In this document: one piece after another, positions 25,845-53,704 of the stretch
How the letters are laid out: the number at the start of each line of letters is the position of its first letter
Numbering within the stretch: the first letter of the stretch is position 1
NCBI RefSeq assembly: GCF_900088825.1
Contig: NZ_LT592170.1
Coordinates: forward strand, 352,962-416,961
Source of the DNA: Thiomonas delicata
GTDB lineage: Bacteria; Pseudomonadota; Gammaproteobacteria; Burkholderiales; Burkholderiaceae_C
DNA: 64,000 nucleotides
Reading direction: 5' to 3'
The notes under the pieces: generated by a model
Database searches by the model: none
What the model was told of the DNA's origin: nothing
Seen by the model: only the letters and a program-made list of their open reading frames with translations
Translations under genes and position numbers: made by a program

Positions 25845-27121
<1,277 letters not shown>

Positions 27122-28604: not shown

Positions 28605-28928
28605 GAGTCACATCCCCCGATGGCTGCCTGTGTCCTCACCCTCGGCACGCCGCCGGTCACCGCCGCGCGCAAGACGTGCCGCGCGGCCAACCGGATTGCC
28701 GACTGTCGTCGGCTTACGCGAAGAGTGATGGTTCTGTTACACGGCCCGACTCGCCGTGGCGAATCAAGGCCGATGGCGCATGTTTTCACACGCCATGGCA
28801 CGCAAGGAACCCCCTGTTGAAGGGTGCCGGATGCGCGATGTCGTGACATAGACTGCATCGAAACTAGGCCAGCCTTGGTCACAGCTCTTGGTCACCGCTG
28901 CCACGCACGCCACCCAATGGAGAACATC
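28605..28928. other. Divergent promoter region of the EPS locus
   Basis: This 324-bp region separates the two EPS operons and should contain both promoters. TAGACT near 28850 resembles a -10 hexamer but lacks a well-spaced -35. A sigma-54 site was looked for because XrtA loci often use one; TGGCACG occurs near 28797, but no GC doublet follows at the -12 distance. The tandem repeat at 28874-28899 is listed separately. Confidence 0.4.
28874..28899. repeat. Tandem 13-bp direct repeat upstream of the export gene
   Basis: CTTGGTCACAGCT is followed at once by CTTGGTCACCGCT (one mismatch), ending 30 bp before ATG 28929. Two same-facing sites 13 bp apart could bind a regulator on the 5' leader or promoter of the EPS operon. 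It may also be chance. Confidence 0.4.
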
Positions 28929-29606: not shown

Positions 29607-31205
29607 ATGAACCTTCGCCGCACGGTGCTTGCCAGCGCCATCATCGCCTCCTGCACCGGTTTCGCGGGGCGCGCCGCACTCGCGCAAGCCCTGCCAGACT
29701 TGCCGGCGCTTGCCGCTTCGGGGGCCGCGGCCGAAACCCAGGGGCCGCCTCCGTCCACCTACCTGGAGCCCTCGCTGGGCCTCCTGGTCACGGGCACCAG
29801 CAACGCCAATTTCGGCGCCGGGGACGCGGCGCGGAGCGACACCATCTTCAACCTCGTGCCCCGCGTGGTGGTGCAGTCGGAGCACGCACACTGGCACCTG
29901 CGCGGCGACTTCCGCCTCAACGGCCTCTACTACGTGCGCGGCACGCAGTCCAACAGCATCCTGCCCAGCGGAAGCCTGGGCCTGGGTTCGGAACTGGTCG
30001 ACCGCTTGCTGTACCTGGATGCAGGCGTCATATCCCAGCAGAACATCATCAACCCCTATGTCGGCCAGTTCAGTAGCCCCTCGTCGAACCAGTACACCAC
30101 CACGCAATACCGCCTCAGCCCCTACATCGACCGGCTGCTCAACCCGAACCTGCGTTTCATTGCCCGCAGCGACAACACCTGGACCCAGGTGACCGGCAAC
30201 ACCGCGAGCACCGGCGCAGTCGGCGGGCGCTATGGCGTGCAGACGGTGAGCCTGGACCAGCGCCCGCTACCCTGGGGCTACACCCTGGTGGCCAGGCAGG
30301 ACAACACCATCTACAACAACCAGCCTTATGCCTCGCTCAAGGACACATCGTTTCGCGCGATCGGCAACTACGCCGTGTCGGACCGGCTGGTGCTGGGGCT
30401 GATCGGCGGCTATGAGAAGGTCGATGCCTTTCTCGCGCAGGTCAGGAAACCCATTTACGGCGTGCGCGGCACGTGGCAACCCGACCCGAACGCAGGCGTC
30501 GAGGCCATGGCCGAACGCCGCTATTTCGGCACCGGCTGGGCCCTTCAGGCCCACGAGGGCACGGGGTTGTTCAACGTCAGCCTGAACTGGACGCGCGGAC
30601 CCATCACCTTCCTGGGCTCACAATTCAATAGCGGACCGCCTGGCTCCAACATCGCATCCCTGCTCGACGGCATGATGCAGTCGCAGTATCCGGACCCCGT
30701 CGCGCGTGCGCAAGCCGTGCAGAACTTGCTCAACAGCGCCGGCCTGCCGTCGTCCCTGTCCACCGCGGACAACTTCTACACCCAGTCGGCCAGCCTGCAG
30801 AACGCGCTCAGCCTCACCGCCCTGATGCTGCGCGAACGCAACAGCTATGCGCTGTCGTTCTACCGCACCAAGACCGAAGACCTGTTCCTGCCGGGGCAGA
30901 CCCTGCTGCAATTGCTGCAGACCCTCTCCACCGACACCATCCAAACCGGCGTGGCCTTCAACTACGGCCGCCGGCTCTCGCCCATCAGCAACCTGAATTT
31001 CACCGTGGTGCGCGCCAACAACACGGGCTTCGGGCCCAACCAAGGCCTGACCTCGCGGCAGACCAGCTTCATCGTCCAACTCGACCGCCGGCTCACGCCG
31101 CGCACCACGGGGCTGATCGGCCTGCGCCGCCAGTTCCTGGTGTCGTCCTACATTCCCGACACCAACGAGTCGGCCATCTTCGCCGGCGTGGTGCACCGGT
31201 TCTAA
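29607..31205 (+). CDS. Outer-membrane beta-barrel protein of the XrtA-type EPS locus
   Basis: 532 residues with a signal peptide cleaved near ALA in GRAALAQA. The mature protein alternates polar and hydrophobic residues throughout, with many Tyr and Asn at turns, and ends in VVHRF, a C-terminal Phe as expected for outer-membrane barrels. Position (after the export lipoprotein, before the ATPase) and pattern match the PEP-CTERM-associated outer-membrane family. It probably assists polysaccharide export. There is a 54-bp gap upstream and 9 bp to the next gene. Confidence 0.8.
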   Translation: MNLRRTVLASAIIASCTGFAGRAALAQALPDLPALAASGAAAETQGPPPSTYLEPSLGLLVTGTSNANFGAGDAARSDTIFNLVPRVVVQSEHAHWHLRGDFRLNGLYYVRGTQSNSILPSGSLGLGSELVDRLLYLDAGVISQQNIINPYVGQFSSPSSNQYTTTQYRLSPYIDRLLNPNLRFIARSDNTWTQVTGNTASTGAVGGRYGVQTVSLDQRPLPWGYTLVARQDNTIYNNQPYASLKDTSFRAIGNYAVSDRLVLGLIGGYEKVDAFLAQVRKPIYGVRGTWQPDPNAGVEAMAERRYFGTGWALQAHEGTGLFNVSLNWTRGPITFLGSQFNSGPPGSNIASLLDGMMQSQYPDPVARAQAVQNLLNSAGLPSSLSTADNFYTQSASLQNALSLTALMLRERNSYALSFYRTKTEDLFLPGQTLLQLLQTLSTDTIQTGVAFNYGRRLSPISNLNFTVVRANNTGFGPNQGLTSRQTSFIVQLDRRLTPRTTGLIGLRRQFLVSSYIPDTNESAIFAGVVHRF

Positions 31206-33511: not shown

Positions 33512-35089
33512 ATGAATGATCTACTCCGTCCCCTGTTCAATCTGCTGCCCTCCATGTGGGAAAAACGCTGGTGGGGCCTGGCCGTGGCCTGGGTGGTCGC
33601 GCTGCTCGGCGCCATCGGCGTGGTGCTTTATCACGAACGCTACATGGCCAGCGCCACCGTGTTCGTCGACACGCAAACCATGCTGCGGCCGCTGATGACC
33701 GGCTTGTCCGTGCAGCCCGACGTGGGCGAGCAGGTCAACATGCTGGCGCGCACCCTGCTTTCGCGCCCGAACGTCGTGCGCATCGCCGAGGAAAATCGCC
33801 TGATTTCCCCGAGCACCCCGCCCGACACGCGGGAGCGCATCATCGAAGCCCTGACGACGGGCATCCAGGTCAAGATCAACGGCCGCGACAACCTCTACCA
33901 GATCAGCTACATCGGCCGCGATCCCGCGCAGGCCCTGGGCGTCGTGCGCAGCGTGCTCGATCTGTTCGTCCACAACGGCATCGCCACCAACCAGAAGGAT
34001 TCGGCGCAGGCCCTGCATTTCATCGACAGCCAGATCGCGATCTACGACAAGAAACTGCGCGACGCCGAAAACAAGCTCAAGGAGTTCAAGACGCAGAACC
34101 CCGGCTACTCCGGCCAGGCCAGCACCGACTACTACACCCGCGTCAGCCAGCTGCAGGACCAGCTCACGCTGCTGCAGGGTCAGCTGACTTCGGCAGCCAG
34201 CTCGCGCGACACCCTGCGGCGCCAGCTGGCCGACATTCGCCCGACGCTCTCGCCTTCGCTGGTGCCTGGCGCCAACGCCGGGCTCCTGCCCCAGCCGTCG
34301 GAGATCGATGTGCGCATCGCCGCGCAGCGCAAACACCTGGACGACCTGCTGCAGCGCTACACCGACGCCTACCCGGACGTCATCGCCACGCGCCAGACCC
34401 TGGCCCGCCTGGAACGCGAGCGGCAGGAGCAGGCGAAGCGCAAGGCCGCGGAACCCGCGCCGACGGCTGGAGCCGGAATCCAGTATTCGGAAGCCACCAA
34501 CCCGGTGTACCAGCAACTGCGCATCAGTCTGGCCCAGGCCGATGCCAACGTCGCCGCGCTGCAGTCGCAGGTCGGCGACGTGCAGGCCAGACTGGGGCAA
34601 CTGCGCGCCCAGGTCGGCAAGCTGCCCAAGCTCGACGAACAGTACGTGCAACTCAACCGCGACTATTCCGTCATCAACGAGAACTACCAGAAGCTCGTGC
34701 AGCGCCGTGAAGCGGCCGTCATCTCGCGCGACCAGGACCAGAGCCAGAAGCTCGACTACTTCCACGTCGTCGACCCGCCGCGCGCCAGCCCCAGACCGCT
34801 GTTTCCCCACCGCAGCGTGCTGATTGCCTTCGTGCTGGTGTTCGCCCTCGCTCTGGGTGCGCTCGCCAGCTATCTGCTCGTGCTGCTGTTCCCCACGTTC
34901 CGCAGCGCGCGCGAATTGCGCGAATCGACCGACCGCGCGGTGCTCGGCTCGATCAGCCTGGTCTTCACGCCCAGAGAAACCAAGGCCGAGCAGCAGCGAC
35001 AAGTGCTGTTCATGACCGGCACAGGCTCGCTGGTGATCCTGTACCTGGCGTGGGTCGTGCTCAACGTGCTCCACCTAATCCACTATTGA
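33512..35089 (+). CDS. Chain-length determinant (Wzz-like) protein of XrtA-type EPS system
   Basis: 525 residues. A first membrane helix (about 20-42) and a Wzz domain (ASATVFVDTQTMLRPLMTGLSV) are followed by a long periplasmic coiled-coil (about 170-420, Gln/Ala/Leu-rich). A second helix before residue 460 and an additional hydrophobic segment at the very end (SLVILYLAWVVLNVLHLI) are characteristic of the PEP-CTERM chain-length family. It controls polymer length and works with the tyrosine autokinase encoded 10 bp downstream. The tract 33429-33511 before it holds only a doubtful 26-codon frame. Confidence 0.88.
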   Translation: MNDLLRPLFNLLPSMWEKRWWGLAVAWVVALLGAIGVVLYHERYMASATVFVDTQTMLRPLMTGLSVQPDVGEQVNMLARTLLSRPNVVRIAEENRLISPSTPPDTRERIIEALTTGIQVKINGRDNLYQISYIGRDPAQALGVVRSVLDLFVHNGIATNQKDSAQALHFIDSQIAIYDKKLRDAENKLKEFKTQNPGYSGQASTDYYTRVSQLQDQLTLLQGQLTSAASSRDTLRRQLADIRPTLSPSLVPGANAGLLPQPSEIDVRIAAQRKHLDDLLQRYTDAYPDVIATRQTLARLERERQEQAKRKAAEPAPTAGAGIQYSEATNPVYQQLRISLAQADANVAALQSQVGDVQARLGQLRAQVGKLPKLDEQYVQLNRDYSVINENYQKLVQRREAAVISRDQDQSQKLDYFHVVDPPRASPRPLFPHRSVLIAFVLVFALALGALASYLLVLLFPTFRSARELRESTDRAVLGSISLVFTPRETKAEQQRQVLFMTGTGSLVILYLAWVVLNVLHLIHY

Positions 35090-35099
35090 GAGGCGCGTC

Positions 35100-36005
35100 A
35101 TGAGCATCATCGAACAAGCCAGCAAACGCCTCGAGGAACTCCGCAAGGCCGGGGTCGACATGCCCTGGGTCGAGGGAGCCGAAGCCGCCAGTCGCGGCCA
35201 GGCGCAGCCTGCCGCGCTGGCCACGGCGTCCCAAGCCGCGCCCACCACGCCCACGGCACCCTCGCGGCTTGCCCCGCCAAAGCGCAACGCCGACATCGAC
35301 CTGCAAGCGCTCGAGGAAGCCGGCTACCTGGTGCCGAATGCCACGCGGACCCGCCTGATGGACGAGTTCCGCAGCATCAAACGCCCGCTGCTGGCCAATG
35401 CCCAGGGCGGCAAGAGCGCAGGTCCGGTCGAGCGCGGCAACCTCATCCTGATCACCAGCAGCCTGCCGGGCGAGGGCAAGACCTTCACGTCCATCAACCT
35501 CGCGATGAGCATGGCGATGGAGCTGAACCACAGCGTGCTGCTGGTGGACACCGACGCCACGCGGGTGGCGGCGGGCGAGCGCCTGGGGCTCAAGCGCGGT
35601 CCCGGCCTTCTCGACCTGCTGCTCGACCCCGCGCTGGACCTCGCCGACGTCGAGCTCGCCACCAATGTGGACAAGCTCACGGTGCTGACCGCCGGCACGC
35701 AGAACGACCGCGCGACCGAAATCTTCAGCAGCCAGGCCATGCAGGACTTCCTCAACCATCTGGCCGCCCACCAGCAGGATCGCATCGTGATCTTCGACGC
35801 GCCGCCGCTGCTGCCTTCGGTCGAGGCGCGCGTCCTGGCGCCCCAGATGGGCCAGGTGGTGCTGGTCGTGCACGCCGGCAAGACCCACCAGGGTTCGGTG
35901 CTGCAGGCCTTGTCCATGCTGGAGGAGTGCCCCGTCGTGATGACCCTGCTCAACCAGTCGCGCACGCCATCCACGGCCTCGCCGTACGGCTATTACGCGT
36001 ATTGA
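35100..36005 (+). CDS. Tyrosine autokinase of XrtA-type EPS system
   Basis: 301 residues, cytoplasmic BY-kinase domain only. Walker A is TSSLPGEGKTFTS near residue 121, Walker A' VLLVDTDAT near 148 and Walker B IVIFDAPPLL near 230. The C-terminal tyrosine cluster SPYGYYAY is the autophosphorylation tail. It partners with the chain-length protein encoded just upstream, whose C-terminal helix anchors the kinase. The N-terminal 90 residues form a low-complexity linker. Phosphorylation cycles should control polymerisation and export. Confidence 0.92.
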   Translation: MSIIEQASKRLEELRKAGVDMPWVEGAEAASRGQAQPAALATASQAAPTTPTAPSRLAPPKRNADIDLQALEEAGYLVPNATRTRLMDEFRSIKRPLLANAQGGKSAGPVERGNLILITSSLPGEGKTFTSINLAMSMAMELNHSVLLVDTDATRVAAGERLGLKRGPGLLDLLLDPALDLADVELATNVDKLTVLTAGTQNDRATEIFSSQAMQDFLNHLAAHQQDRIVIFDAPPLLPSVEARVLAPQMGQVVLVVHAGKTHQGSVLQALSMLEECPVVMTLLNQSRTPSTASPYGYYAY

Positions 36006-36071: not shown

Positions 36072-37037
36072 ATGGAATGGACGCAAGCAACGCATTCCGG
36101 CAAGACCGACGCGCCCGGCCTGCATCGCGCAGCGCCGGCGCCGGCGGGAATCGCGGCGGTCGACCCCGCGCGGTTTTCCACCCACGTCATGCACGCCATC
36201 CGGCACGACTATGCGGACCATCCGCTGATGCAGCTGCCCCGCCTGGCACAGCTGGCGCACGACCTCATGCCCAGCCGCCAGTGTCGCTTCATCCGTCCCG
36301 GCACGACACAGACCTCGGAGTTCTTCCACACGCCCAAAACCCCCGACGGGCTGGGCATCGACGAGGTGTTCGCGCGCATCGAGGAGCCAGGCTCCTGGGT
36401 CGCGCTCTACAACGTGCAGACCGACCCGCACTACGCCGCCTTCCTCGACGAGGTCATGGCCGGCGCCCGGCCGTTGATCGAACCTGAACAGCCGGGCGTG
36501 TTCCGCGTCGCCGGCTTCATCTTCATCTCGGCGCCGCCCTCGGTCACGCCGTTCCACATCGACCGCGAGAACAACTTCTGGCTGCAGATCCGCGGCCGCA
36601 AGATCATGACCGTGTTCGACCATGCCGACCGCGCCGTGGTGCCGGCGCGCGAGGTGGAGGAATTCATCGTGCACGGCTCCCTGCGCAACGTGCGCCTCGA
36701 CCCCGCGCTGCGCCACCACGGCCGGGACTTCGACGTCGGACCCGGCGACGGCGTGTATTTCCCCGCCACCTCGCCGCACATGACCCGCACCACCACCGAC
36801 TGGGTGCGCGCCGGCGATGGCGTCTCGATCTCCATCGGCGTGGTGTTCTACACCGCCACCACGCGCCACCTGGCCCGCGTGCACCAGTGCAACCGGGTGC
36901 TGCGCCAATGGGGCCTGCAGCCGTCCTTTCCTGGTTCCAGCCCCTGGCGCGATGCGATCAAGGCGCCACTCGGCCGCGCCTTCGCGCTCGCGCGCGTCAG
37001 GATGCTCCATTACGTCGCCCCGCCCGGCGCCTATTGA
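36072..37037 (+). CDS. JmjC/cupin-8-like Fe(II)/2-oxoglutarate oxygenase candidate
   Basis: 321 residues with a perfect AGGAGG Shine-Dalgarno seven bases upstream. A cupin/JmjC-like fold is suggested by TPFHIDRENNFWLQIRGRKIMTVFDH, which contains a HxD pair (HID) near residue 162. A distal His lies in YFPATSPHMTRT, together matching the HxD...H iron facial triad. The segment GDGVYFPA precedes the distal His as usual. It sits between the kinase and the NRPS-PKS genes, so a hydroxylase acting on a carrier-bound amino acid or the product is a reasonable inference, not proven. It could alternatively be a cupin-like regulator. Confidence 0.7.
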   Translation: MEWTQATHSGKTDAPGLHRAAPAPAGIAAVDPARFSTHVMHAIRHDYADHPLMQLPRLAQLAHDLMPSRQCRFIRPGTTQTSEFFHTPKTPDGLGIDEVFARIEEPGSWVALYNVQTDPHYAAFLDEVMAGARPLIEPEQPGVFRVAGFIFISAPPSVTPFHIDRENNFWLQIRGRKIMTVFDHADRAVVPAREVEEFIVHGSLRNVRLDPALRHHGRDFDVGPGDGVYFPATSPHMTRTTTDWVRAGDGVSISIGVVFYTATTRHLARVHQCNRVLRQWGLQPSFPGSSPWRDAIKAPLGRAFALARVRMLHYVAPPGAY

Positions 37038-37333
37038 AGGGATCGGCGCCTCCGGGGGCAGCCGTGCGTTTTCTTGAAACGCGACAAGCCGGATCGGCTT
37101 GCTGCCCGCCCGCTTGCGCGTTGCTGCCAACTTGTTCACGCAGCAGGTCATGGCCTGCTCTCCAGGGCGCCCCCTCACCCATTCGAGGGGAAGAATTTCG
37201 CACCCATGACCCCTAGACTCATTCCCACATCGCGCGGCCTCGTGCGATCGCGCAAAACACAGCGCGGGCACCGCCTCCATCGCCAGGACCCGGACGATGC
37301 GAAGCGCGGATCAAGGAAAAAGAGATCTCCGAC
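37038..37333. other. Gap before the NRPS-PKS genes
   Basis: 296 bp with no recognisable gene. It probably holds a promoter for the synthetase operon, but no clear -35/-10 pair is visible. AAGGA at 37315-37319 is a distant Shine-Dalgarno for ATG 37334. Confidence 0.35.
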
Positions 37334-40300
37334 ATGCAAGCCGAATCCGTCAACGCAAGGCCGCTAACGCCGGCATCTGCGCCTGCCTTCGCGCCTGCTG
37401 CCGCATCCGCCGTGCTCGACCTGCTCCGCGCCCTCCCGGGCAAGGAGCACGACGCCTCTTGCGCCGAGGCCGCGCTTCAACTGCCCGCCGCGCTCACGTC
37501 TGGAATCCAGGACCTCGCCGCCCGCATGGGCTGGCTGGACGACACGCCCGGCGCTGCCGCCTGGGTTCTGCTCCTGCTGCGGTGGCTCGGCGCCCCCCGG
37601 ATCGGGCTTGACGAACTCCGCGCGCCGGTTTCTGCAGCCGATGCCGGCGAACCCGCCTCGGGCCGCCCCGCGCTGACGCGTTGCACCTACGGCCAGCCGG
37701 AGCAGGCCACCGCGCGGGCCTGGATGCAGAACGTGGACGCGATCCGGCGCGCGTCGCCGCAGCTCCCCGCCGCGTCCTGGCCCGGCACATCGGCGGCGCT
37801 CTGGCTGGGCCAGGGTGTCGACGCCGCGCGCATCACGCAGCATGGGATTCCGATCGCCATCGCCCTGGAGCCGAATGGCGCGCTGCGCATGCGTTACGCC
37901 GCAGCGCGGCTCGGCCCCGAGCAGGCCGATGCCATGCTGGCGGCATTGGCGCACGCCATGGGCGTCCTGATCGCGCACCCGGACGGCTTGGCGCGCGAAG
38001 TCCCGACCTTGAGCGACGCGCAGCGCACCTGGCTCGACGCCTTGAATCCGCCGGCAGATCCGCCCGATGCGGCACGCGCGGTGCATGCCGTGTTCGCGCA
38101 GCAGGCTGCCCTGCGCGGCGACGCGCCGGCCCTGACGCATGCCGGCGAAACGCTCAGCTACCGCGAACTCGAGGCGCGCGCCGAAGCCTGGTGCGCCCGG
38201 CTTGGCCATGCCGGCGCACAGCCTGGCGCCGTCGTCTGCGTGGCGCTCGGCCGCGGCCTCGACAGCATCGCCGTCCTCCTGGGCATACTCAAGGCCGGCT
38301 GCACCTATCTTGCGCTGGATGCCCAGCTTCCGTCCGAACGCATCGCTTTCATGCTGGCCGACGCCGGGGTCAGCCTGGTGGTCACCGACACCATGCGCCG
38401 CGGCGCGCTCGCACACGCGCTGCCCTTGTTGTTGACCGACGACCCCGCAGCCGAGGCCGGGATGGCCGGCGCGGCGGCCCCAGCCATCCCGGCCTCGGCT
38501 GCGCCGGCCCCTGCCTACATCATGTACACCTCGGGCTCGACCGGAACGCCGAAGGGCATCGTCATCGGCCATGCGTCCATCCTGCGCCTGGTGCTGAACG
38601 CGCCGTTCATGCGCCTGGATGCCAACACCCGCATGCTGCACGCCGCACCGCTGGGATTCGACGCCTCCACGCTCGAGATCTGGGGGCCGCTGCTCAACGG
38701 CGGCGTCTGCGTGCTGCACGACGAGGACCTGCCCACGCCTGCCGGGCTGGCGCGCACCATCCGGCGCGACGCCGTCAACGCCGCGTGGCTCACCGCCGCG
38801 CTGTTCAACACCGTGGTGGACGCCGACCCCACATCCCTGTGCGGCCTCGCGCAGCTGCTCACCGGCGGCGAGGCCCTGTCCGTGCCGCATGTGCGCCGCG
38901 CGCTGCAGGCCTTGCCCGGGACGCAGATCATCAACGGCTACGGCCCGACCGAATGCACCACCTTCGCCACCACCTACCCCATCCCGCGCGAGCTGCCGGA
39001 AGGCCTGCGCGCCATCCCCATCGGCAGGCCGATCCGCGACACCCGCGCTTATGTGCTGGGCCCCGGGGCAACGCTGCTGCCCCCGGGCCTGGTGGGTGAA
39101 CTCCACGTGGGCGGCAGCGGCCTGGCCATCGGCTACCTGAACCGGGCCGCGCTCGATGCCGAGCGCTTCGTGGTCAATCCGTTCGGCCCGTCCGGCACGC
39201 ACCTGTACCGCACCGGCGACCTCGTGCGCTGGCTGCCGGACGGCCAGCTCGACTACGTCGGCCGCGCGGACACCCAGGTCAAGATTCGCGGCTTTCGCAT
39301 CGAGCTCGGCGAAATCGAAACCGCGCTGGCCAAGCACCCCGCCGTGCGCTCCTGCGCGGTCATCGCGCGCAAGGACGCCGCCGGCCAGGCGCGCCTGCTG
39401 GCCTATTGCGTGGCCGCCGGGCGGCCGGTTCCGACGGCGGAACTGCGTGAGCGACTCGCCGCGCGGCTGCCGGACTACATGGTGCCGGCCGCGTTCATCT
39501 GGCTGGACGCATTGCCCATCACGGCCAACGGCAAGCTCGACCAGCGCGCGCTGCCCGAGCCTTCCGCCGAACGGCCCGACCTGGTCGTGCCCTACCAGAC
39601 GCCGCAGGACGACGCCGAACGCCGCGTCTGCGATGCCTTCGCGCAGGCCCTGGGTCTGCAGCGGGTCGGCCGGCTGGACAATTTTTTCGACCTCGGCGGC
39701 AACTCGCTGCTGGTGCTGCGCGTGCTGGCCCTGCTCGGGCAGGGCGGCGGCGCCACCGCGACGCTGAGCACCCATGCCTTCTTCGGCCAGCCCACGCCAC
39801 AAGCGCTGGCGCGCCTGCTCACGAACGCCCCCGCTACGGCCCCCGCGCTCGATGCGCGCCGCATGGCCAAACCCTTGCAAGACCCCGCCGCGCAGAGCGA
39901 GCAGGCGCCTCGTGCCACGACCCGCTCGACGCCGGCCGATGCGCGCCATGCCCCGGTCGCCATCGTGGCCGTGGCCGGGCGCTTTCCCGGCGCGGCCGAC
40001 GTCGAAACGTTCTGGGCCAATCTGCTCGCCGGACGCGACACCATCACCCATTTCAACGCCGACCAGCTCGACCCCAGCCTGCCCGCCAGCCTGACGCAAG
40101 ACCCCGACTACGTGAAAGCGCGCGGCGTGATCGACGGCGTCGACCTGTTCGACGCCGCCTTCTTCGGCATCGCCCCGCGCGAGGCCGCGCTGATGGACCC
40201 GCAGCAGCGCATCTTCCTCGAACTGTGCTGGGAATGCCTGGAGCGTGCCGGCCACGCGCCGGATGCCACGACCGTGCCGGTGGGCGTGTTCGCCGGCATG

Positions 40301-43300
40301 TACAACGCCACCTACTTCCAGCATCACGTGCAGCACCGGCCTGAACTCGTCGAGGCGCTCGGCGCCTTCCAGACCATGCTGGGCAACGAGAAGGACTACA
40401 TCGCCACGCGCGTGGCCAACCGGCTCAACCTCACCGGCCCGGCGGTCAGCGTGCACACCGCCTGTTCCACCTCGCTGGTGGCCATCGCCCAGGCCGTCAT
40501 CAGCCTGCGCGCGGGCCAGTGCGACATGGCGCTGGCCGGCGGCAGCTCGGTGACCTGTCCGCCCAACAGCGGCTACCTCTATCAGGACGGCGCGATGCTC
40601 TCGCCCGACGGCGCCACGCGCAGTTTCGACGCCAAGGCCCAGGGCACGGTGTTTTCCGACGGCGCCGCCGTGGTGCTGCTCAAGCGGCTGGACGACGCAC
40701 TGGCCGATGGCGACGCCGTGCTCGCCGTCATTCGCGGCGTGGCCATCAACAACGACGGCCGCGACAAGGCCAGCTTCACCGCCCCCAGCGTGGACGGCCA
40801 GGCCGCCGTGATCGCCGCCGCCCAGCGCGACGCCGGCATCGACGCGCGCAGCGTGAGCTATGTCGAAACCCATGGCACCGCCACCCCGATGGGCGACCCG
40901 GTGGAAGTCGAGGCGCTCACGCGCGCGTTCCGCCAGCACACCGACGACGCGGGCTTTTGCCGCATCGGCTCGCTCAAGAGCAACGTCGGCCACATGGTCA
41001 TCGCCGCCGGCGCCGCAGGGGTGATCAAGACGGCCCTGGCCCTGGCGCGCGAAACCCTGCCGCCCAGCATCCACTACACCGCGCCGAACCCCGGCATCGA
41101 CTTCGCCCGCAGCCCCTTCATGGTCTGCGACCGGCTCACGCCCTGGCCGCGCGGCGAGCAGCCGCGCCGCGCCGGGGTCAGCGGCTTCGGCGTGGGCGGC
41201 ACCAACGCCCACGTGGTGCTGGAAGAGGCCCCCGCGCCCGCGCCGTCGTCGGCCGCCGTCGGCCCGCAATTGCTCGCGCTCTCGGCCAAGAGCCCCGCGG
41301 CGCTGGACGCCGTGGCCGCAGAGCTGGCCGCGCATCTCCAAGCCCATCCCGACCTCAATCTGGCTGACGCCGCCTACACCCTGCAAGTGGGACGCAGCGC
41401 CTTCACGCACCGGCTGTGCGTGGTCGCGCAGACCACGCAGGACGCCGTGCAAGCCTTGCAAACGGCCTCACACCCGTGGCGCGCGCAGCGCAAAGTCGGC
41501 AGCGGCGAGCCGCCCATGGTCTGGCTGTTTCCGGGTCAGGGCGCGCAATACGCCGGCATGGGCCGTGGCCTGTACGCGGCCGACGCCGATTTCCGCGCCG
41601 CCTTCGACGCCGCCCTCGCCGCACTCGCCCCGCATCTGGACTTCGACCTGCGCGCGCGCATGTTCGGCAACGAACCCGGTGCGCCGGGGGCGGATCTCCT
41701 CACCGGCACGGGCACCACCCAACCCGCCACGTTCTGCCTCGAATACGCCCTGGCGCAAAGCTGGCTCGCGCGCGGGGCCAGGCCGGCTGCGCTGATCGGT
41801 CACAGCGTGGGCGAATTCGTCGCCGCCGTGCTGGCGGGCGTGATGCGCCTGAGCGACGCCGCGCAGCTCGTGGCCCGGCGCGGCGCCTTGATGCAGGCCT
41901 TGCCCCCGGGCGGCATGCTGTCGGTGCGCCTGTCCGCGAGCGACGTGCTGGCGCGCTTACCCGAGGCGCTGGCCCTGGCAGCCGAGAACGGCCCTGCGGC
42001 CTGCGTCGTCGCCGGCCCGCGCGAGGCCATCGAAGCCTGGCGCGCCGCGCTGGAGGCCGACGGGGTGCAGGCGCGCGTGCTGCAAACCTCGCACGCTTTC
42101 CATTCGTCCATGATGGACCCGGCCCTGGCGCCGTTTGCCGACGTGGTCCGAGCCGTCGCACTCGCCGCGCCGAGCCTTCCCATCGTCTCCACCCGCACCG
42201 GCACCTGGATGACCGAGGCCGACGCCATCAGCGCCGATTACTGGGCCCGCCACCTGCGCGAGCCGGTGCGCTTCTCCCCCGCCATCCGCACGGCGCTCGC
42301 GCGCCACACCGACGCCGCCTTCCTGGAGGTCGGCCCGCGCGGCGCGCTGTCCACCCTGGCGCGCCAGCATGGCCCCGCCGGCAGCGTGCTGGCCATTCCC
42401 AGCCTAGCCGACACGCCCGAAACCGAGGCCGCGCAGATGCTGCTGGCACAAGGCGCGCTGTGGACCGCGGGCCTTGCACTGGCCGCTTCCGCGGCCAACC
42501 CGGCCACCGCGCGCCATCGCATCCCCTTGCCCACCTACGCCTTCGAACGCAAGCGCTATTGGGTCGAGGCCGCCGCGACGCAACAGCGCGGCTCGACAAC
42601 AAACGCGCCGGGCCATGCCCAAGCCGAATCCGCGCCACAGGCCAGGCCCGTTTCAGACGTCCCCAGCGCCGCGGTGCTGGCCTTCACTCCACCGCCTCAC
42701 GCCAACGCCATGTCTTCCACCACGCCCGCACCGACCCATCCGGCGACATCAGGCAACGCGCCCGCCGCGCGGAAGCTCCAGCTGATCGCACGTCTGCGCG
42801 CCTTGTTCGACGACGTGTCCGGCAGCGACCTCGGCGACACGGACCCCACCATCCCCTTCGTCGAGCTCGGCATCGATTCGCTCACCCTGACCCAGGCGGC
42901 GCTGCAGGTCAAACGCGAGTTCGGCGTCAGCGTCACCTTCCGCCAGTTGATGGAAAGCCTGCGCAGCCTCGACGCGCTGGCCGATCACCTCGACGCGCAA
43001 TTGCCGCCGGAGCCCGCCACCCAGCCGCAAGCCGCAACCGTTGCGGCAGCTGCGCCACAGGGCTTGGCCATGCCCGCAGCCGTCATGCCGGCCCCCGGCA
43101 CCAACGCGCCTCTGCTGCAACAGGTCATCCAGCAGCAGATGCAACTCATGGCGCAACAGCTCGCGCTCCTGAGCGGGGTCCAGCCCGCGGCACCGCAGGC
43201 CGACACCACACCCCCCGCCGCTCCCGCGCCGACCGCAACGGCCGCGGCGGACGCAGCAAGCGCCACCGACGATGCCGGCGTCCAGCGCTACGACGTGAAA

Positions 43301-44829
43301 AAGGCCTTCGGCGCGATCGCCCGCATCCATACCCAGGCCAGCCCGCTGACCGAGCGCCAGCGCGCGCGCCTGGACGCCTTCATGCGCCGCTACGTGGAGC
43401 GCACGGCCAAGAGCCGGGCGTACACGGAACAGCATCGCGCGCATCTGGCCGACCCGCGCGTGGTCAACGGCTTCCGGCCGATGATCAAGGACATCGTCTA
43501 TCAAATCGTCGTCGCGCGCAGCAAGGGCTCCCATCTGTGGGACCTGGACGGCAACGACTATGTGGACGTGCTCAGCGGCTTCGGCATGAGCCTGTTCGGC
43601 TGGCAGCCCGACTTCGTGCTGGACGCCGTGCGCAGGCAGCTCGACGACGGCTACGACATCGGCCCGCAGCATCCGCTGGCCGGTCCGGTGGCCGAGCTGG
43701 TGTGCGAGCTCACCGGCTTCGACCGCGCCGGCCTGTGCAACACCGGCTCCGAGGCCGTCATGGCCGCCGTGCGCATCGCCCGCACCGTCACCGGGCGCAG
43801 CACCGTGGTGCTGTTCACCGGCTCCTACCACGGCACCTTCGACGAAGTGCTGGTGCGCTCCGGGCGCGAGCACAAGGGCATCCCGGCCGCCCCCGGCATC
43901 ATGCGCGGCATGTTCGGCGACGTGCGCGTGCTGGACTACGGCACCCCCGAGGCGCTCGCATTCATCCGGGCCCATGCCGACGACCTCGCCGCGGTGCTGG
44001 TCGAGCCGGTGCAAAGCCGCCGGCCCGAGTTCCAGCCGGTGGACTTCCTCAAGGACGTGCGCGCCATCACCGAGCAAAGCGGAACCTGCCTGATCTTCGA
44101 CGAGGTCATCACCGGCTTCCGCTGCGCGCTCGGCGGGGCGCAGCAGGTATTCGGCGTGCGCGCCGACCTGGCCAGCTACGGCAAGGTCATCGGCGGCGGC
44201 ATGCCCATCGGCGTCATCGCCGGCAAGCGCGAATTCATGGACGCGCTCGACGGCGGCGCCTGGCAGTACGGCGACGACTCCATCCCCAGTGTGGGCGTCA
44301 CCTACTTCGCCGGTACCTTCGTGCGTCACCCCTTGGCGCTGGCCGCGGCCCACGCCAGCCTGACCCATCTCAAGCAGCAAGGCCCGGCGCTGCAACAGCG
44401 GCTCAACGCCGCCACCACGGCACTGGCCGACGAGCTCAGCGCCTTCTGCCGCGAGCACGGCGCGCCGTTGGAAATCCGCCATTTCGCCTCGTTGTGGCGC
44501 GTGGCCTGGCTGGAAGACCACCCGTTGCAGGACCTGCTGTTCGCCATGATGCGCAGCCGCGGCGTGCACATCCTCGACAACTTCCCCTGCTTCCTGACCA
44601 CCGCGCACAGCGAAGCCGACATCGTCCACATCGCCGGCGCGTTCAAGGACTCCGTGCGCGAGCTGCAGGAATCCGAATTCCTGCCGCGCCACAAGTCCCC
44701 CGTGTCCGTCGTGTTCGACGCCGCCAAGCCCCCGGTGCCCGGTGCCCGCCTGGGCAAGGACCCCAGCGGCAAACCCGCCTGGTTCGTGCCCAACCCCGAC
44801 GACCCGGCCAAATACCTGAAGGTGGGCGC

Positions 44830-44833
<4 letters not shown>
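37334..44833 (+). CDS. Hybrid NRPS-PKS: partial C, A, PCP, KS, AT, ACP, aminotransferase
   Basis: 2,499 residues. The first about 240 residues look like the C-terminal half of a condensation domain without HHxxxDG. An A domain (250-740) has [14 protein letters not shown] near 395; its ten specificity positions read D-A-L-W-L-G-G-T-F-K by alignment to GrsA, close to valine codes. A PCP follows (Ser791 in GGNSL). The KS (874-1300) has Cys1044, His1180 and His1220. The AT (about 1395-1700) has GHSVG with Ser1491 and HAFH (His1590), indicating malonyl-CoA. The ACP has Ser1849 in GIDSL. Residues 1990-2480 are a class III aminotransferase with PLP Lys2284 in YGKVIGGG, as in mycosubtilin/iturin synthetases. 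Expected product: a chain-extended, beta-aminated acyl-ACP. No ketoreductase is present. The stop overlaps the next start. Confidence 0.9.
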
Positions 44834-49872
<5,039 letters not shown>

Positions 49873-49889
49873 GCCCTAGGGAGACCATC

Positions 49890-50744
49890 ATGTTGACCAC
49901 ACCCATGCTCGAACCCCATGCGCAGCGCTGGCTGCGCGCGCGCGGCAACGCGCCGTATGGACCCGCGGCGCACACGCCGGCGCAGACGGCGCAGGCCTTG
50001 CGCGAACATGCGCCAGCGCGTCGCAACCCCGCTCTGCAGCGCCCGCAAGGCCGCGACGTGCACCTGTGGCACATCGACCTGCGCGACATGGGCACCGACG
50101 CCGTGAACCTGCTCGACGCCGCGGAACTCGCGCGCGCCCAGCGCTTCGTCTATGCGCACGACTGGCGCCGCTATGTGGCCGCGCACGCCTGGCTGCGCCG
50201 CGTCCTGGGCGCCTATCTCGGCATCGCGCCTCAGCATCTGCGCTTCGACGCCGACGCGCACGGCAAACCCATGCTCGCGCATCGGCACGCGAACGGCGAT
50301 GCGGCGCTGCGTTTCAACATGAGCCACAGCAAGGACATCGCGCTGATCGCCGTCACCTCGGGGCCCGAAGTCGGGGTGGACATCGAAGCCCTGCGCGACG
50401 ACCTTCCCGGCCCCGATCTGGCCGCCGGCGTGCTCAGCGCCGGCGAGCTCGACGAACTTGCGCGGTGCGCGCCGCTAGACCATCCGGCGGTGTTCGTCGG
50501 CTGCTGGACGCGCAAGGAGGCCTGTCTCAAGGCGCTGGGCGTCGGCCTCGGCCTGGAACCCCGCGCGCTCGACGTCGGGCTTCAGGCGCAGCGCATGACG
50601 CTGCAGCTGGGCAGCGGCGAACCCGCCGTCGACCTGGCCCCGCTGCCGTGTCCGCCCGGCTACGCCGCGGCCCTGGCCGTGGTTGGCGGTTTCGCGGGCG
50701 TCGCGCGTCAGGACGCGGCGCTGGTCTGGGAGGGCATGTCTTGA
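49890..50744 (+). CDS. Sfp-type 4'-phosphopantetheinyl transferase
   Basis: 284 residues from ATG 49890 (AGGGAG upstream); 17 bp after the NRPS stop. The first 50 residues are an extension without homology visible. The Sfp signatures are present: RFNMSHSKDIALIAV, GVDIEAL (metal-binding Asp/Glu) and WTRKEACLKALGVGL. It transfers phosphopantetheine from CoA to the carrier serines (791, 1849 of the PKS-NRPS; 1046, 1614 of the NRPS). Its presence shows the assembly line is self-contained. The following hydrolase start overlaps its stop. Confidence 0.92.
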   Translation: MLTTPMLEPHAQRWLRARGNAPYGPAAHTPAQTAQALREHAPARRNPALQRPQGRDVHLWHIDLRDMGTDAVNLLDAAELARAQRFVYAHDWRRYVAAHAWLRRVLGAYLGIAPQHLRFDADAHGKPMLAHRHANGDAALRFNMSHSKDIALIAVTSGPEVGVDIEALRDDLPGPDLAAGVLSAGELDELARCAPLDHPAVFVGCWTRKEACLKALGVGLGLEPRALDVGLQAQRMTLQLGSGEPAVDLAPLPCPPGYAAALAVVGGFAGVARQDAALVWEGMS

Positions 50745-51565
50745 CCCCGATGCGCTTCTCGCATGGTGCGCGCGAACTGTTCGGCTTGCACCTCGAACCG
50801 CGTGCCGCCACGGCGCGCGGCCATGCCGTGCTGTTGTGCAACCCCTTCGGGCAGGAAGCCATTCGGGCCCACCGTTTCTACCGCGTGCTGGGCGACCGCC
50901 TGGCGGCGGCCGGCTTCGATGTGCTGCGCTTCGACTACTACGGCAGCGGGGACTCGGGCGGCGAAGACGCCGACTTCGACCTCGACGGCAGCATCGCTGA
51001 CACCGTGGCCGCGGGGCGCCTGCTGCTGCAGCGCAGCGATGCGGAGCGCCTGTCCTGCATCGGACTGCGGCTGGGGGGCAACATCGCCCTGGCGGCGACC
51101 GCGGGCTGGGCCACGCCGGCCGCCCACGTGGCCATGCTGGAGCCGGTGCCGGACGGATTCGCCTACCTGGACGAACTGGCCGGCGCCAACGCGCAGGCCC
51201 TGGCACGCACCTTCGGCGCGCGCTGGCGCGTGGATGCGCAACTGCGGGCGTTCAATCTTCCCGCGCCGCAGGCCGAGGCGCTGGGCTTCGTGCTGACGCC
51301 GCCATGCCGCGCGCAGATCGCGCGCATCGCCCTCATGCGCAGCTGGCCCGGCCGCTGCGACAGACTGCTCATCCTGAGCCGCGACGTCGACGTGCTGGCG
51401 CGGTGCGCCGCCGCGCGCGACCCGTCGCGTTTGCCTGAGGCCGAGGTCTCGGCCTCGCATTGCGACATCGATTGGGCGACCAACAGCGCGCTCAACACGG
51501 CCATCGTGCCGATGCACTGGGTGACGCGGCTGCTGAGCGAGTTGACGGAGCAGGTCCATGCGTGA
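50741..51565 (+). CDS. Alpha/beta hydrolase, exosortase A-associated hydrolase 2-like
   Basis: About 274 residues; TTG 50741 has GGGAGGG six bases upstream and overlaps the PPTase stop, while ATG 50750 is the alternative. Fold motifs: LLCNPFGQEAIRAHRFYR, LRFDYYGSGDSGG, and at the nucleophile elbow GLRLGG where GxSxG would have Ser. The elbow form GLRLG and the context match, from memory, the exosortase A system-associated hydrolase 2 family, which also lacks a serine there. A role in releasing or proof-reading the NRPS product is possible, but the missing Ser argues against ordinary esterase chemistry. Overlaps the next hydrolase gene by 8 bp. Confidence 0.75.
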   Translation: MTPMRFSHGARELFGLHLEPRAATARGHAVLLCNPFGQEAIRAHRFYRVLGDRLAAAGFDVLRFDYYGSGDSGGEDADFDLDGSIADTVAAGRLLLQRSDAERLSCIGLRLGGNIALAATAGWATPAAHVAMLEPVPDGFAYLDELAGANAQALARTFGARWRVDAQLRAFNLPAPQAEALGFVLTPPCRAQIARIALMRSWPGRCDRLLILSRDVDVLARCAAARDPSRLPEAEVSASHCDIDWATNSALNTAIVPMHWVTRLLSELTEQVHA

Positions 51566-52493
51566 GATCTCGCTCGCCTTCGGGCCCGGACAAGCGCTGG
51601 TCGGCACCCTCACCCTGCCCGCCGCGGACCAGGCCGCGCCCGCAGCCCCGCTCGGCCTGGTGATGTTCAATTCCGGGGTCGTGCACCGCATCGGGCCGCA
51701 CCGCATCAACGTCAAGCTGGCGCGGAAGCTGGCGCTGCGCGGCATCCCCTCGATCCGCTTCGACCTGCACGGCATGGGCGACAGCCTGCGCGCGGACGGC
51801 GTGCTGCCCTACGAGCGGCAGGCTGTCGCGGACCTCGGCCTGGCGATGGACGCCCTGCAGGACTGCGCCGGCGTGGCCCGCTTCGCCCTGCTCGGCTTCT
51901 GTTCGGGCGCCGTGCCAAGCTATCTGGCGGCCCAGGCCGACCCCCGGGTCGGCGCCGTCATCCTGTACGACGCCTTCGCCTTCCCCACGCCGAGGAGCCG
52001 GGCGCGCTTTCTCTGGCTGCGCCTGAGCGGACACGGGTTCGACCCGCAAGCGCTGCGGCGCGATGTCCGCCGGCTCGGGCGTGGCCTGGCGCGGCTGCCG
52101 CACCGCCTGTTCGAGCGCCTGCGCCGGCGCGGCAACGAGACGTTCAAGCAAGCCGGCCCGTCAGAGCAAAAGCAGCCGATGATGGTGCGTGGACTGGGCG
52201 AATTGACACGCCGTGGCGTCAAGGTCGTCGTGCTGCATGCGGGCGACGATTTCGGCGTCGCCAACTACGCCGAGCAGTTTCGCGACGCCATGGGCGACGC
52301 CTTGCCGCGCGAAGGCCTGCACTACGGCTTTCTCGCCTCCATCGACCATGTCGCCACCTCGACCCCGGCGCAAAAGGTGTTTCTCGACGCCATCTGCGCC
52401 GCCCTGCTCGGCGACCACCTCGACTGCATGCCCGCCGACGCATCGCCCGCGCCGGCGAGCCCTGCCGCGCACTCGGCCGCGGAAGTCGGCTGA
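51558..52493 (+). CDS. Alpha/beta hydrolase, exosortase A-associated hydrolase 1-like
   Basis: 311 residues. VMFNSGVVHRIGPHRINVKLAR and IRFDLHGMGDS are alpha/beta-hydrolase motifs; the elbow reads GFCSG, so a Cys occupies the nucleophile position. HAGDDFGV and a His in SIDHVATS near the C-terminus could complete a triad. It resembles the exosortase A-associated hydrolase 1 family, where Cys at the elbow is usual (from memory). It starts 8 bp inside the previous hydrolase gene. A thioesterase-like release of the NRPS chain or acyl transfer to the polymer is a possible role. Confidence 0.75.
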   Translation: MREISLAFGPGQALVGTLTLPAADQAAPAAPLGLVMFNSGVVHRIGPHRINVKLARKLALRGIPSIRFDLHGMGDSLRADGVLPYERQAVADLGLAMDALQDCAGVARFALLGFCSGAVPSYLAAQADPRVGAVILYDAFAFPTPRSRARFLWLRLSGHGFDPQALRRDVRRLGRGLARLPHRLFERLRRRGNETFKQAGPSEQKQPMMVRGLGELTRRGVKVVVLHAGDDFGVANYAEQFRDAMGDALPREGLHYGFLASIDHVATSTPAQKVFLDAICAALLGDHLDCMPADASPAPASPAAHSAAEVG

Positions 52494-52567: not shown

Positions 52568-53704
52568 ATGTCCTCCGCAGCCATCGCCTTCTGGATCTCC
52601 AGCCTCTTCATCGCCTACACCTACGTCGGCTACCCGCTGCTGGTGGCGGCGCTCTCGCGCCTGTGCCGCCGCCATCCCTGCGCGCTGCTGGACGACGCGG
52701 CCCTGCCGCGCGCCACGGTCGTGATGGCCGCCTACAACGAGGGCGCCAGGCTGGCGCAGAAGATCCGCAACCTGCGCGCGCTGGACTATCCGCAGGACAA
52801 GCTCGACATCCTGGTCGTCTCGGACGGCTCCACCGACGGTTGCGCCGACGCCGTGCGCGACATGCCGGGCGTGCGCGTGCTGGCCTATCCGCAGCGGCAG
52901 GGCAAGGCCCATGCGCTGAACCTGGCGCTGGCCGAGGTGAGCACGGAATTCGTCGTGTTCTGCGACGTGCGCCAAGACCTGCAGCCGCAGGCCGCGCGCC
53001 GCCTGATCTCGGACTTCTGCGACGCCGACGTCGGCGCCGTCAGCGGCGAACTCGTGCACCGCCCCGGCGCGACGCAAGCCGGGGCGAGCATCGGCCTGTA
53101 CTGGCGCTACGAGAAATGGATTCGCAAGTCCGAGAGCCGGCTGCATTCCACCGTCGGCGCCACCGGCGCGCTCTACGCCATCCGCACGCGCGACTACCAG
53201 CCGCTGCGGCCCGACACCATCCTCGACGATTTCGAGATCCCCATGCACATCGCGCGCCAGGGCAAGCGCACCCTGCTGGAGAGCCAAGCGCATGTCTACG
53301 ACACCCTGCAAACCCAGTCCGCCGCGGAGCAAAAGCGCAAGATCCGCACCCTCACCGGCAATTTCCAATCGTTCACCAGACATCCCTGGCTGTTCTCGCC
53401 GCTCGACAATCCGGTGTGGTTTCAGTTCATCTCGCACAAGGTGTTCCGGCTGGCCGTGCCCTATGCCCTCGTCGTCGCCCTGCTTTCCAGCGCCATCGCG
53501 CCGGCCATGCCCTACCGCGCCGCGTTTGCGCTGCAGCTCGGCTTCTACCTGCTGGCCGCCGCCGGGCAATGGGCTCCCGCGACCCGGCGCAACAAGCTGG
53601 TCAGCTTCGCCCACGTCTTTTTCGACATGAACGCCGCCGCCGTCGTCGCACTCACGCGCTTTCTGGCCGGCCACGCCAGCGCCAAATGGGAAAAAACCAC
53701 ATGA
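52568..53704 (+). CDS. Membrane-associated family 2 glycosyltransferase
   Basis: 378 residues. An N-terminal membrane helix (about 5-30) precedes a GT2 (GT-A) domain with VVMAAYNEG, VVSDGSTDG, the acidic FCDVRQ block in DxD position, GATGALYAIR, and LDDFEIPMHI. C-terminal hydrophobic segments (about 290-375) anchor it. The layout resembles processive or cellulose-synthase-like family 2 enzymes. It probably adds sugars to the lipid-linked EPS repeat on the cytoplasmic side. Donor sugar is unknown. Confidence 0.85.
   Translation: MSSAAIAFWISSLFIAYTYVGYPLLVAALSRLCRRHPCALLDDAALPRATVVMAAYNEGARLAQKIRNLRALDYPQDKLDILVVSDGSTDGCADAVRDMPGVRVLAYPQRQGKAHALNLALAEVSTEFVVFCDVRQDLQPQAARRLISDFCDADVGAVSGELVHRPGATQAGASIGLYWRYEKWIRKSESRLHSTVGATGALYAIRTRDYQPLRPDTILDDFEIPMHIARQGKRTLLESQAHVYDTLQTQSAAEQKRKIRTLTGNFQSFTRHPWLFSPLDNPVWFQFISHKVFRLAVPYALVVALLSSAIAPAMPYRAAFALQLGFYLLAAAGQWAPATRRNKLVSFAHVFFDMNAAAVVALTRFLAGHASAKWEKTT

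What the first reader, a model, noticed from the sequence alone, without database searches (positions are those of the whole stretch)
36072..52493. A hybrid NRPS-PKS line with a beta-aminotransferase sits inside an exopolysaccharide operon
The synthetase genes, a phosphopantetheinyl transferase, a JmjC/cupin-like enzyme and two alpha/beta hydrolases are flanked on both sides, on the same strand, by EPS export, kinase, glycosyltransferase and deacetylase genes with short gaps or overlaps. XrtA-type EPS loci often carry an acyl-CoA ligase, a carrier protein and the same two hydrolases (from memory). Here an entire assembly line seems to occupy that place. The inference is that a beta-amino-acid-containing peptidyl or acyl group is attached to the polysaccharide or is made with it.
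Basis: partly seen in the sequence, partly recalled or inferred. Interest (0 to 1): 0.85.

Follow-up and report, generated by a model that had tools for sequence, protein, structure and literature searches.

The report
Peptide assembly line in polysaccharide operon
A hybrid peptide-polyketide assembly line, predicted to make a small diamino-acid peptide, sits inside a sugar-polymer export operon; related bacteria carry the same gene cassette, often but not always beside such operons, so it may build a new kind of polymer decoration, which is not yet shown.

Summary
An intact NRPS-PKS (A-PCP-KS-AT-PCP-aminotransferase, then C-A-PCP-C-PCP), a phosphopantetheinyl transferase and two alpha/beta hydrolases lie co-directionally between the kinase and a glycosyltransferase of an XrtA-type exopolysaccharide (EPS) locus. 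Relatives carry the block as a cassette in XrtA-type EPS loci, in Wza/Wzc EPS loci of Variovorax, among housekeeping genes (in 15 loci beside an AcrB-like efflux pump) and, shortened, on plasmids. EPS linkage recurs: within 15 kb of an export gene in 10 of 24 genomes (0.36 expected; 0 of 19 other NRPS clusters). It is not obligatory. Same-genus G032 has the same order from export gene to wzy with a 45-bp gap where the block sits; the EPS tree favours loss over recent arrival. The hydrolases share a signature with the exosortase-A-associated pair (h1 Cys nucleophile, h2 Arg there), which usually follows a small carrier protein; an off-loading role is inferred. All ten genomes tested from the two genera with this EPS subtype lack an exosortase. 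Predicted chain: Val-derived 3,4-diamino acid plus Ser. Attachment to polysaccharide is plausible but unshown; a free product is nearly as likely. An insertion sequence splits one glycosyltransferase gene of the operon.

The parts
27195..28604 (-). Priming sugar transferase (Bac_transf), divergent from the EPS core
   Evidence: PF02397 E 2.1e-71
28824..29552 (+). XrtA-type EPS export protein
   Evidence: TIGR03027 206.8 bits, cut-off 180
29607..31205 (+). XrtA-associated outer-membrane protein
   Evidence: TIGR03016 187.8 bits, cut-off 90.85
31215..33428 (+). XrtA-associated ATPase fused to a WecB-like epimerase
   Evidence: TIGR03015 367.2 bits, cut-off 324.5; TIGR00236 below its cut-off; Epimerase_2 E 1.3e-51
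33512..35089 (+). Chain-length determinant
   Evidence: TIGR03007 452.6 bits, cut-off 278.85
35100..36005 (+). XrtA-associated tyrosine autokinase
   Evidence: TIGR03018 233.5 bits, cut-off 230.65
36072..37037 (+). Cupin/JmjC-like putative Fe(II)/2OG hydroxylase
   Evidence: JmjC_2 at cut-off, Cupin_8 below; its cluster has 6 members, upstream of NRPS1 in 5 (one gene between in L096)
37334..44833 (+). NRPS1: hybrid A-PCP-KS-AT-PCP-AMT protein (start codon uncertain)
   Evidence: Pfam, NCBIfam
38093..39535 (+). A1, code DALWLGGTFK (Val-like)
   Evidence: PF00501/PF13193; code; DALWMGGTFK given as a valine code in PMC3943440; best solved match linear gramicidin synthase subunit A
39620..39820 (+). 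PCP1
   Evidence: PF00550 E 4.7e-9
39953..41077 (+). Ketosynthase
   Evidence: PF00109/PF02801; HTACS in sequence
41519..42349 (+). Acyltransferase, malonyl-type by its HAFH motif (recalled rule)
   Evidence: PF00698; sequence
42791..42991 (+). Carrier domain after AT
   Evidence: PF00550 E 1.6e-13
43502..44575 (+). Class-III beta-aminotransferase
   Evidence: PF00202; 6kfm best solved match
44830..49872 (+). NRPS2: C-A-PCP-C-PCP, no TE found, last module without A domain
46363..47796 (+). A2, code DVWHVSLVDK (Ser-like, recalled assignment)
48136..49437 (+). Second condensation domain
   Evidence: PF00668 at G000:C4:401097-402398
49582..49767 (+). Terminal PCP
   Evidence: PF00550 E 1.5e-11
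49890..50744 (+). 4'-phosphopantetheinyl transferase (start from my gene caller)
   Evidence: PF01648 E 2.8e-13
50750..51565 (+). h2: alpha/beta-hydrolase fold with Arg107 at the nucleophile elbow (start from my gene caller)
   Evidence: Arg in 69 of 71 and 39 of 39; model pLDDT 91.7; TIGR03101 68.4 bits, cut-off 202.75
51558..52493 (+). h1: alpha/beta hydrolase with Cys115 as likely nucleophile and His264
   Evidence: Cys and His in 69 of 69; model pLDDT 83.8; TIGR03100 75.3 bits, cut-off 168.45
52568..53704 (+). GT2 glycosyltransferase
   Evidence: PF00535
53781..54566 (+). Polysaccharide deacetylase
   Evidence: PF01522
54526..56037 (+). Wzy-type polymerase/ligase
   Evidence: PF04932; start from my gene caller

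Best explanation
A transmissible cassette (NRPS1, NRPS2, and in most full-length loci a PPTase, h2 and h1; often a cupin/2OG oxygenase or TIGR04325 methyltransferase nearby) builds a short carrier-bound chain. Predicted: A1 loads valine; KS-AT adds malonate; the aminotransferase turns the beta-ketone into an amine, giving a 3,4-diamino acyl unit; NRPS2 adds serine. The last C-PCP module has no A domain and is probably loaded by A2 or acts as an acceptor. No thioesterase domain was found, so h1 (Cys) with the pseudo-hydrolase h2 probably hydrolyses the chain off or hands it to an acceptor. In EPS-linked members the product most likely works with the polysaccharide, as a substituent on it or its lipid-linked precursor or as a co-produced surface molecule. 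Shown by sequence: domains, motifs, conserved order, recurrent EPS linkage. Inferred: substrates, chemistry, off-loading, destination.
For: Order NRPS1-NRPS2-PPT-h2-h1 recurs in XrtA-EPS, Wza/Wzc-EPS and non-EPS settings. Cassette within 15 kb of Poly_export in 10 of 24 genomes, 5 of 10 genera, expected 0.36, against 0 of 19 other NRPS clusters. In Dyella (L096) the line is followed on the same strand by GT2, a Wzy-type gene and a weak Wzx-type match. All carriers searched have a Poly_export gene somewhere (24 of 24; 49 of 49; base rate in non-carriers not measured). Cys in h1 69 of 69, Arg in h2 69 of 71 (some genomes represented twice); true XrtA h1 has Cys in 10 of 10, h2 Arg in 8 of 9 slices shown. 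In XrtA loci an 83-90-aa carrier gene stands directly before h2-h1 in 7 of 10. Nearest solved relatives: mycosubtilin synthase aminotransferase, linear gramicidin synthase A domain. In five loci (L053, L095, L096, L101, L120) NRPS2 has an A domain in its last module. EPS linkage on a Variovorax paradoxus replicon is in the public annotation.
Against: 24 of 80 loci lie among housekeeping genes, and 15 loci have an AcrB-like efflux gene (cluster 23), on the opposite strand beside the cassette in the maps I printed. Two plasmid copies lie in stretches without EPS export genes. The EPS core persists without the cassette in G032 and G240. The EPS-linked g49 loci read (G049, G244) and the two plasmid copies lack PPT, h2 and h1 nearby, so h1/h2 cannot be essential everywhere. 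The 24 genomes share ancestry, so 10 of 24 are not independent events; G005 is linked only divergently. No gene in the cassette is a recognised sugar acyltransferase. The window's EPS operon has a glycosyltransferase gene split by an insertion sequence. No chemistry was tested.
Confidence: 0.42

Rival explanations
1. The cassette makes a free small molecule (for example a metal-binding or bioactive diamino peptide) whose function has nothing to do with polysaccharide; EPS loci are merely variable regions where it settles.
For: 24 of 80 loci sit among housekeeping genes, two lines in queuosine-gene regions (G158 and L072), some on plasmids. In 15 loci an AcrB-family efflux gene is near, on the opposite strand in the maps printed, and one plasmid copy lies near RND/HlyD/TolC genes. 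Cassette absent from two same-genus genomes. Four of 19 other NRPS clusters lie within 50 kb of an export gene.
Against: 0 of 19 other NRPS clusters lie within 20 kb of an export gene, against 10 of 24 for the cassette. The efflux gene is not co-directional and may be an ordinary resident of that site (not tested). The hydrolase pair is shared with EPS-type loci.
Confidence: 0.38
2. The chain is transferred to another envelope molecule (lipid, LPS core, peptidoglycan) present in all carriers, so linkage to EPS loci reflects common regulation rather than attachment.
For: It would explain both EPS-linked and unlinked members. Some cassettes carry a GDSL/SGNH-like protein with an N-terminal hydrophobic stretch (cluster 46: 5 members, three of them in loci where I saw no h2/h1).
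Against: No envelope acceptor or transferase identified; no such SGNH gene was seen in the window cassette.
Confidence: 0.13
3. The line is decaying or silent in this genome.
For: An insertion sequence splits an EPS glycosyltransferase gene; EPS loci of relatives appear to have lost the cassette.
Against: Open frames, active-site motifs, all four carrier serines and a PPTase.
Confidence: 0.07

Closest known systems
XrtA-associated ligase/decarboxylase/carrier/hydrolase group (TIGR03098, TIGR03099, carrier protein, TIGR03101, TIGR03100)
   Same: Adenylating activity, carrier protein, then h2 (Arg at elbow) and h1 (Cys) in that order, in genomes with XrtA-type EPS loci.
   Different: Here a two-protein NRPS-PKS with its own PPTase stands in place of single ligase and carrier; no PLP decarboxylase seen; hydrolases score far below the family cut-offs; position is after the tyrosine kinase.
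Mycosubtilin/iturin and microcystin-type NRPS-PKS with embedded aminotransferase
   Same: KS-AT-PCP-AMT module making a beta-amine; closest solved AMT is mycosubtilin synthase subunit A.
   Different: Starter is an amino-acid A domain with a valine-like code, not a fatty-acyl ligase (comparison recalled), so a vicinal diamine is predicted; no TE domain; EPS setting.
XrtA/PEP-CTERM exopolysaccharide locus
   Same: Five XrtA-associated EPS core families over cut-off.
   Different: No exosortase match in the genome, nor in the nine other g1 and g49 genomes tested, against 18 of 18 XrtA-type comparison genomes with one.
Variovorax Wza/Wzc EPS locus
   Same: Cassette directly upstream of Wza and Wzc on the same strand.
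   Different: Different export system.

Membership tests
XrtA-type EPS locus | Export, OMP, ATPase, chain-length and kinase families over NCBIfam cut-off | tested here: met
XrtA-type EPS locus | Exosortase in the genome | tested here: not met
   PF09721 no match at E<=0.001 in own genome, 99.99% complete
TIGR03100 / TIGR03101 hydrolases | Score over curated cut-off | tested here: not met
   h1 75.3 of 168.45; h2 68.4 of 202.75
TIGR03100 / TIGR03101 hydrolases | Cys (h1) and Arg (h2) at the elbow, adjacent h2-h1 order after a carrier protein | tested here: met
   in the cassette a PPTase gene lies between the carrier and h2
XrtA ligase-carrier mini-system | TIGR03098 ligase and TIGR03099 decarboxylase in the locus | tested here: not met
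   none of the 29 window ORFs (18-64 kb, some of them shadow frames) given to NCBIfam reached either cut-off; A1 and A2 hit TIGR03098 below cut-off; rest of the genome not searched for them
NRPS-PKS with beta-aminotransferase | KS-AT-PCP-AMT in one protein followed by a C domain | tested here: met
NRPS-PKS with beta-aminotransferase (iturin type) | Fatty-acyl ligase starter | tested here: not met
   TIGR01733 amino-acid adenylation domain over cut-off, Val-like code
EPS-decorating enzyme set | Product covalently on polysaccharide | not testable with these tools
   needs chemistry

The most novel reading that the evidence does not exclude
An NRPS-PKS assembly line makes a vicinal-diamino acyl-serine unit that the h1/h2 pair transfers to an exopolysaccharide or its lipid-linked repeat: assembly-line decoration of a sugar polymer, with the exosortase-A-associated hydrolase pair as a general carrier-to-sugar transfer device shared with the simpler XrtA ligase-carrier system.
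Probability: 0.27. Interest if true: 0.85.

Novelty: new variant of a known kind. Interest (0 to 1): 0.6.

Why it matters
A widespread assembly line, which my searches did not find described, with a testable product is tied, repeatedly but loosely, to exopolysaccharide export. It suggests a function for the hydrolase 1/2 families so far named only by their exosortase company: off-loading of carrier-bound aminoacyl chains. It also identifies XrtA-type EPS loci in two genera in whose tested genomes no exosortase is found. If the product is on the polymer, assembly-line chemistry would become a way to modify bacterial polysaccharides.

Tried and rejected
Chance ORFs rejected: domains, motifs and recurrence. 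Strict EPS-only function rejected: housekeeping and plasmid settings. Recent island in the window lineage not favoured: cassette-less EPS loci of G032, G240 and G158 group with cassette-bearing L035 and L091 in the EPS-core tree (18 rows, five with half or less of the columns filled, some forks open, so indicative only). G049 has its cassette at the same place, but the AMTs of its genus (G312, G371) branch outside the window clade, so independent arrivals there are possible. On the AMT tree the label EPS/no EPS changes at least 7 times; for that count I set some labels by hand.

I lowered the EPS reading from 0.45 to 0.42 and its novel case from 0.30 to 0.27, and raised the free-product rival from 0.35 to 0.38. 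Several neighbour clusters remain unannotated.

Distances (Poly_export in 49 named genomes) were not used, because its contig numbers could not be matched safely to the named contigs.

A first reading of A-domain codes by pattern misread position 278 and was replaced by an alignment-based reading. Ser, Gly, Pro and Thr assignments are recalled; Val is stated for DALWMGGTFK in PMC3943440 (passage), while PMC12283262 (passages) lists DALWIGGTFK in its Leu/Ile/Val section.

Literature: searches listed no paper that I recognised as describing this cassette (open-access PMC only, titles and abstract starts seen). PMC3283707 (abstract, passages, sections 5 and 16) studies EPS mutants of Variovorax paradoxus; its mutant table and the passages seen do not mention the cassette, and 'synthetase', 'polyketide' and 'NRPS' do not occur in its text. 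PMC1569441: no match for the terms searched. PMC5583390: passages, not relevant. (sheath peptides) and one search gave nothing used. Other papers: search listings only.

Structure: Foldseek of h1 gives general alpha/beta hydrolases and esterases, no functional pointer; the h2 model was not searched.

Counts: one search uses hand-copied coordinates; a second partial AMT match of G367 was dropped; C-domain clusters closer than 25 kb to cassette C domains were merged with them, which removed G000's second NRPS at C4:425090 and G158's at C52:33817 from the control. Context labels: 8 XrtA-like, 22 Wza/Wzc, 24 housekeeping, 26 unassigned of 80. They see only the held flank (at most 10 kb each side of the aminotransferase match, a few kb beyond the cassette); many unassigned loci are cut by contig ends. 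Among the 8, L046 is divergent from the EPS core and L096 rested on one GT2 until one search added a Wzy-type gene.
Full report
What is there. The window lies in a 3.84-Mb genome, 99.99% complete. Between 28.8 and 36.0 kb is an XrtA-type EPS core; TIGR03027, 03016, 03015, 03007 and 03018 all score over cut-off. Then follow, all on the + strand, a cupin/JmjC-like protein, NRPS1, NRPS2, a phosphopantetheinyl transferase and two alpha/beta hydrolases (h2, h1). After them come a GT2, a deacetylase and a Wzy, then further glycosyltransferases and a Wzx-like protein. NRPS1 is A-PCP-KS-AT-PCP-aminotransferase; NRPS2 is C-A-PCP-C-PCP without a detected thioesterase. Catalytic motifs are present. The observation and its coordinates are correct.

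Predicted chemistry. A1 reads DALWLGGTFK; a paper passage gives DALWMGGTFK as a valine code (PMC3943440) and another lists DALWIGGTFK in its section on Leu/Ile/Val domains (PMC12283262). The best solved match of A1 is linear gramicidin synthase subunit A. A2 reads DVWHVSLVDK, serine-like by recall. Of 164 A domains read (some genomes counted twice), 49 have the Val-like type, 13 a Pro-like type, 5 the Ser-like A2 type, and 33 a DILQ(L/M)G type that I recall as glycine. The aminotransferase is closest to mycosubtilin synthase's. With valine, malonate and transamination the expected unit is a 3,4-diamino acid, then serine. In L053, L095, L096, L101 and L120 the last NRPS2 module has its own A domain; in the window it has none, so A2 may load both carriers. 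All of this is inference from sequence.

The cassette in other genomes. With the aminotransferase region as query, 24 of 399 same-family genomes (own included) match at E<=1e-60, and the named collection gave 207 confirmed stretches, of which 80 were kept: Variovorax, Xenophilus, Ideonella, Methylibium, Piscinibacter, Lautropia, Pseudoxanthomonas, Dyella and others. NRPS1-NRPS2-PPT-h2-h1 recurs as a block. Its settings (80 loci): XrtA-like EPS 8, Wza/Wzc EPS 22, housekeeping 24, unassigned 26. The housekeeping setting has SDR, FolB, PP-loop, DUF4136 and His-phosphatase genes upstream; downstream some loci have a MiaB-like gene, and 15 loci hold an AcrB-family efflux gene, on the opposite strand beside h1 in the maps printed. 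In Dyella (L096) the line is followed by GT2, a Wzy-type gene and a Wzx-type match below cut-off. Two plasmid copies lack PPT/h2/h1 and carry TIGR04325 methyltransferases and a 2OG oxygenase; one V. paradoxus 2.5-Mb replicon has the full cassette directly upstream of Wza, Wzc and a sugar transferase. The EPS-linked g49 loci also lack PPT, h2 and h1 in the stretches read (G049, G244).

Is EPS linkage real? In the 24 genomes the aminotransferase lies within 15 kb of a Poly_export gene in 10, expected 0.36 at random placement; of 19 other condensation-domain clusters in the same genomes none is within 20 kb, 2 within 30 and 4 within 50 kb. The ten span five genera of ten: three with the XrtA export type (one of them, G005, divergent) and two with another type. 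Shared ancestry means this is not ten events. In the 49%-identity class, G290 has h2 and h1 beside the line, next to an XrtA EPS locus. So linkage is recurrent but not obligatory. Carriers without linkage still have a Poly_export gene somewhere (24 of 24 and 49 of 49 genomes), but the rate in non-carriers was not measured.

Close relatives. G032 has the same order from export gene to wzy, with 45 bp between kinase and GT2 and neither cassette nor hydrolases (genes beyond wzy are inverted); G240 has kinase-h2-h1-GT2; in G158 the cassette lies about 43 kb from the export gene, beside queuosine genes. In a tree of concatenated EPS proteins these three group with cassette-bearing L035 and L091 (100/100), so loss is more economical than recent gain.

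The hydrolases. h1 has a Cys in GxCxG in 69 of 69 and an invariant His; h2 has Arg at the equivalent place in 69 of 71 (some genomes represented twice). Models put Cys115 and Arg107 at the strand-helix elbow. Their best NCBIfam families are hydrolase 1 and 2 of XrtA systems, below cut-off. In true XrtA loci, h1 has the Cys in 10 of 10 and h2 the Arg in 8 of 9 slices shown (the ninth slice missed the motif), and a small carrier-protein gene stands directly before h2-h1 in 7 of 10 loci, mostly beside a ligase and decarboxylase. I infer that the pair off-loads carrier-bound chains in both systems; loci that lack it must do otherwise. Of the 62 of 250 genomes with a true TIGR03100, none is one of the 24 cassette genomes; how many of the 24 were in that draw is shown only for G000, G005, G016 and G158.

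Exosortase. PF09721 finds nothing in the window's genome, nor in any of the 5 g1 and 5 g49 genomes tested (a sixth g1 genome, G367, without TIGR03027, was not tested), while 18 of 18 comparison XrtA genomes have it, as do G005 (82 bits), G129 and G290. The XrtA name is therefore by homology of the export machinery only.

A caution. A 1.6-kb insertion sequence with 20-nt inverted ends (56326-56345, 57928-57947) splits a glycosyltransferase gene just after wzy; relatives G032 and G240 have it intact. EPS production in this strain may be altered.

Verdict. The claim that the product is attached to polysaccharide is plausible (about 0.27) but not shown, and an efflux pump beside unlinked cassettes speaks for a secreted product there. 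What is well supported is a conserved, transmissible NRPS-PKS cassette, usually with a Cys-hydrolase/pseudo-hydrolase pair, that recurs beside EPS loci of two export types.

Noticed in passing
56326-57947 (IS), splitting 56033-56329 and 57943-58770: A DDE-transposase insertion sequence interrupts a GT4 glycosyltransferase gene of the EPS operon; intact copies exist in G032 and G240.
   Followed up: yes
31215-33428: XrtA-associated ATPase fused to a WecB-like UDP-GlcNAc 2-epimerase; proteins of similar length cluster with it in the EPS loci of G032, G240, G158, G308, G049 and G005.
   Followed up: partly
whole genome G000 and nine relatives: XrtA-type EPS locus without any exosortase match in the five g1 and five g49 genomes tested.
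   Followed up: yes
24795-27097 (- strand): TviC-like epimerase (409 bits, below its cut-off of 760) with a separately called neighbouring gene of 418 aa that I take, by recall, for a TviB-like dehydrogenase; suggests an amino-uronic sugar in the EPS.
   Followed up: no
L193:8032-16465 (G000:C4, about 6 kb right of the window end): A second NRPS (2174 aa) preceded by a 619-aa AMP-ligase-like protein; G308 has a similar NRPS beyond its EPS locus.
   Followed up: partly
L044:19411-21792 and cluster 23: AcrB-family efflux gene, on the opposite strand beside the cassette in the maps printed; its cluster occurs in 15 loci.
   Followed up: partly
L050:17385-18473 and cluster 46: GDSL/SGNH-like protein with an N-terminal hydrophobic stretch beside some cassettes, three of its five members in loci where I saw no h2/h1.
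   Followed up: partly
L206, L208: Plasmid cassettes with paired TIGR04325 methyltransferases and a 2OG oxygenase, near copper-related genes.
   Followed up: no
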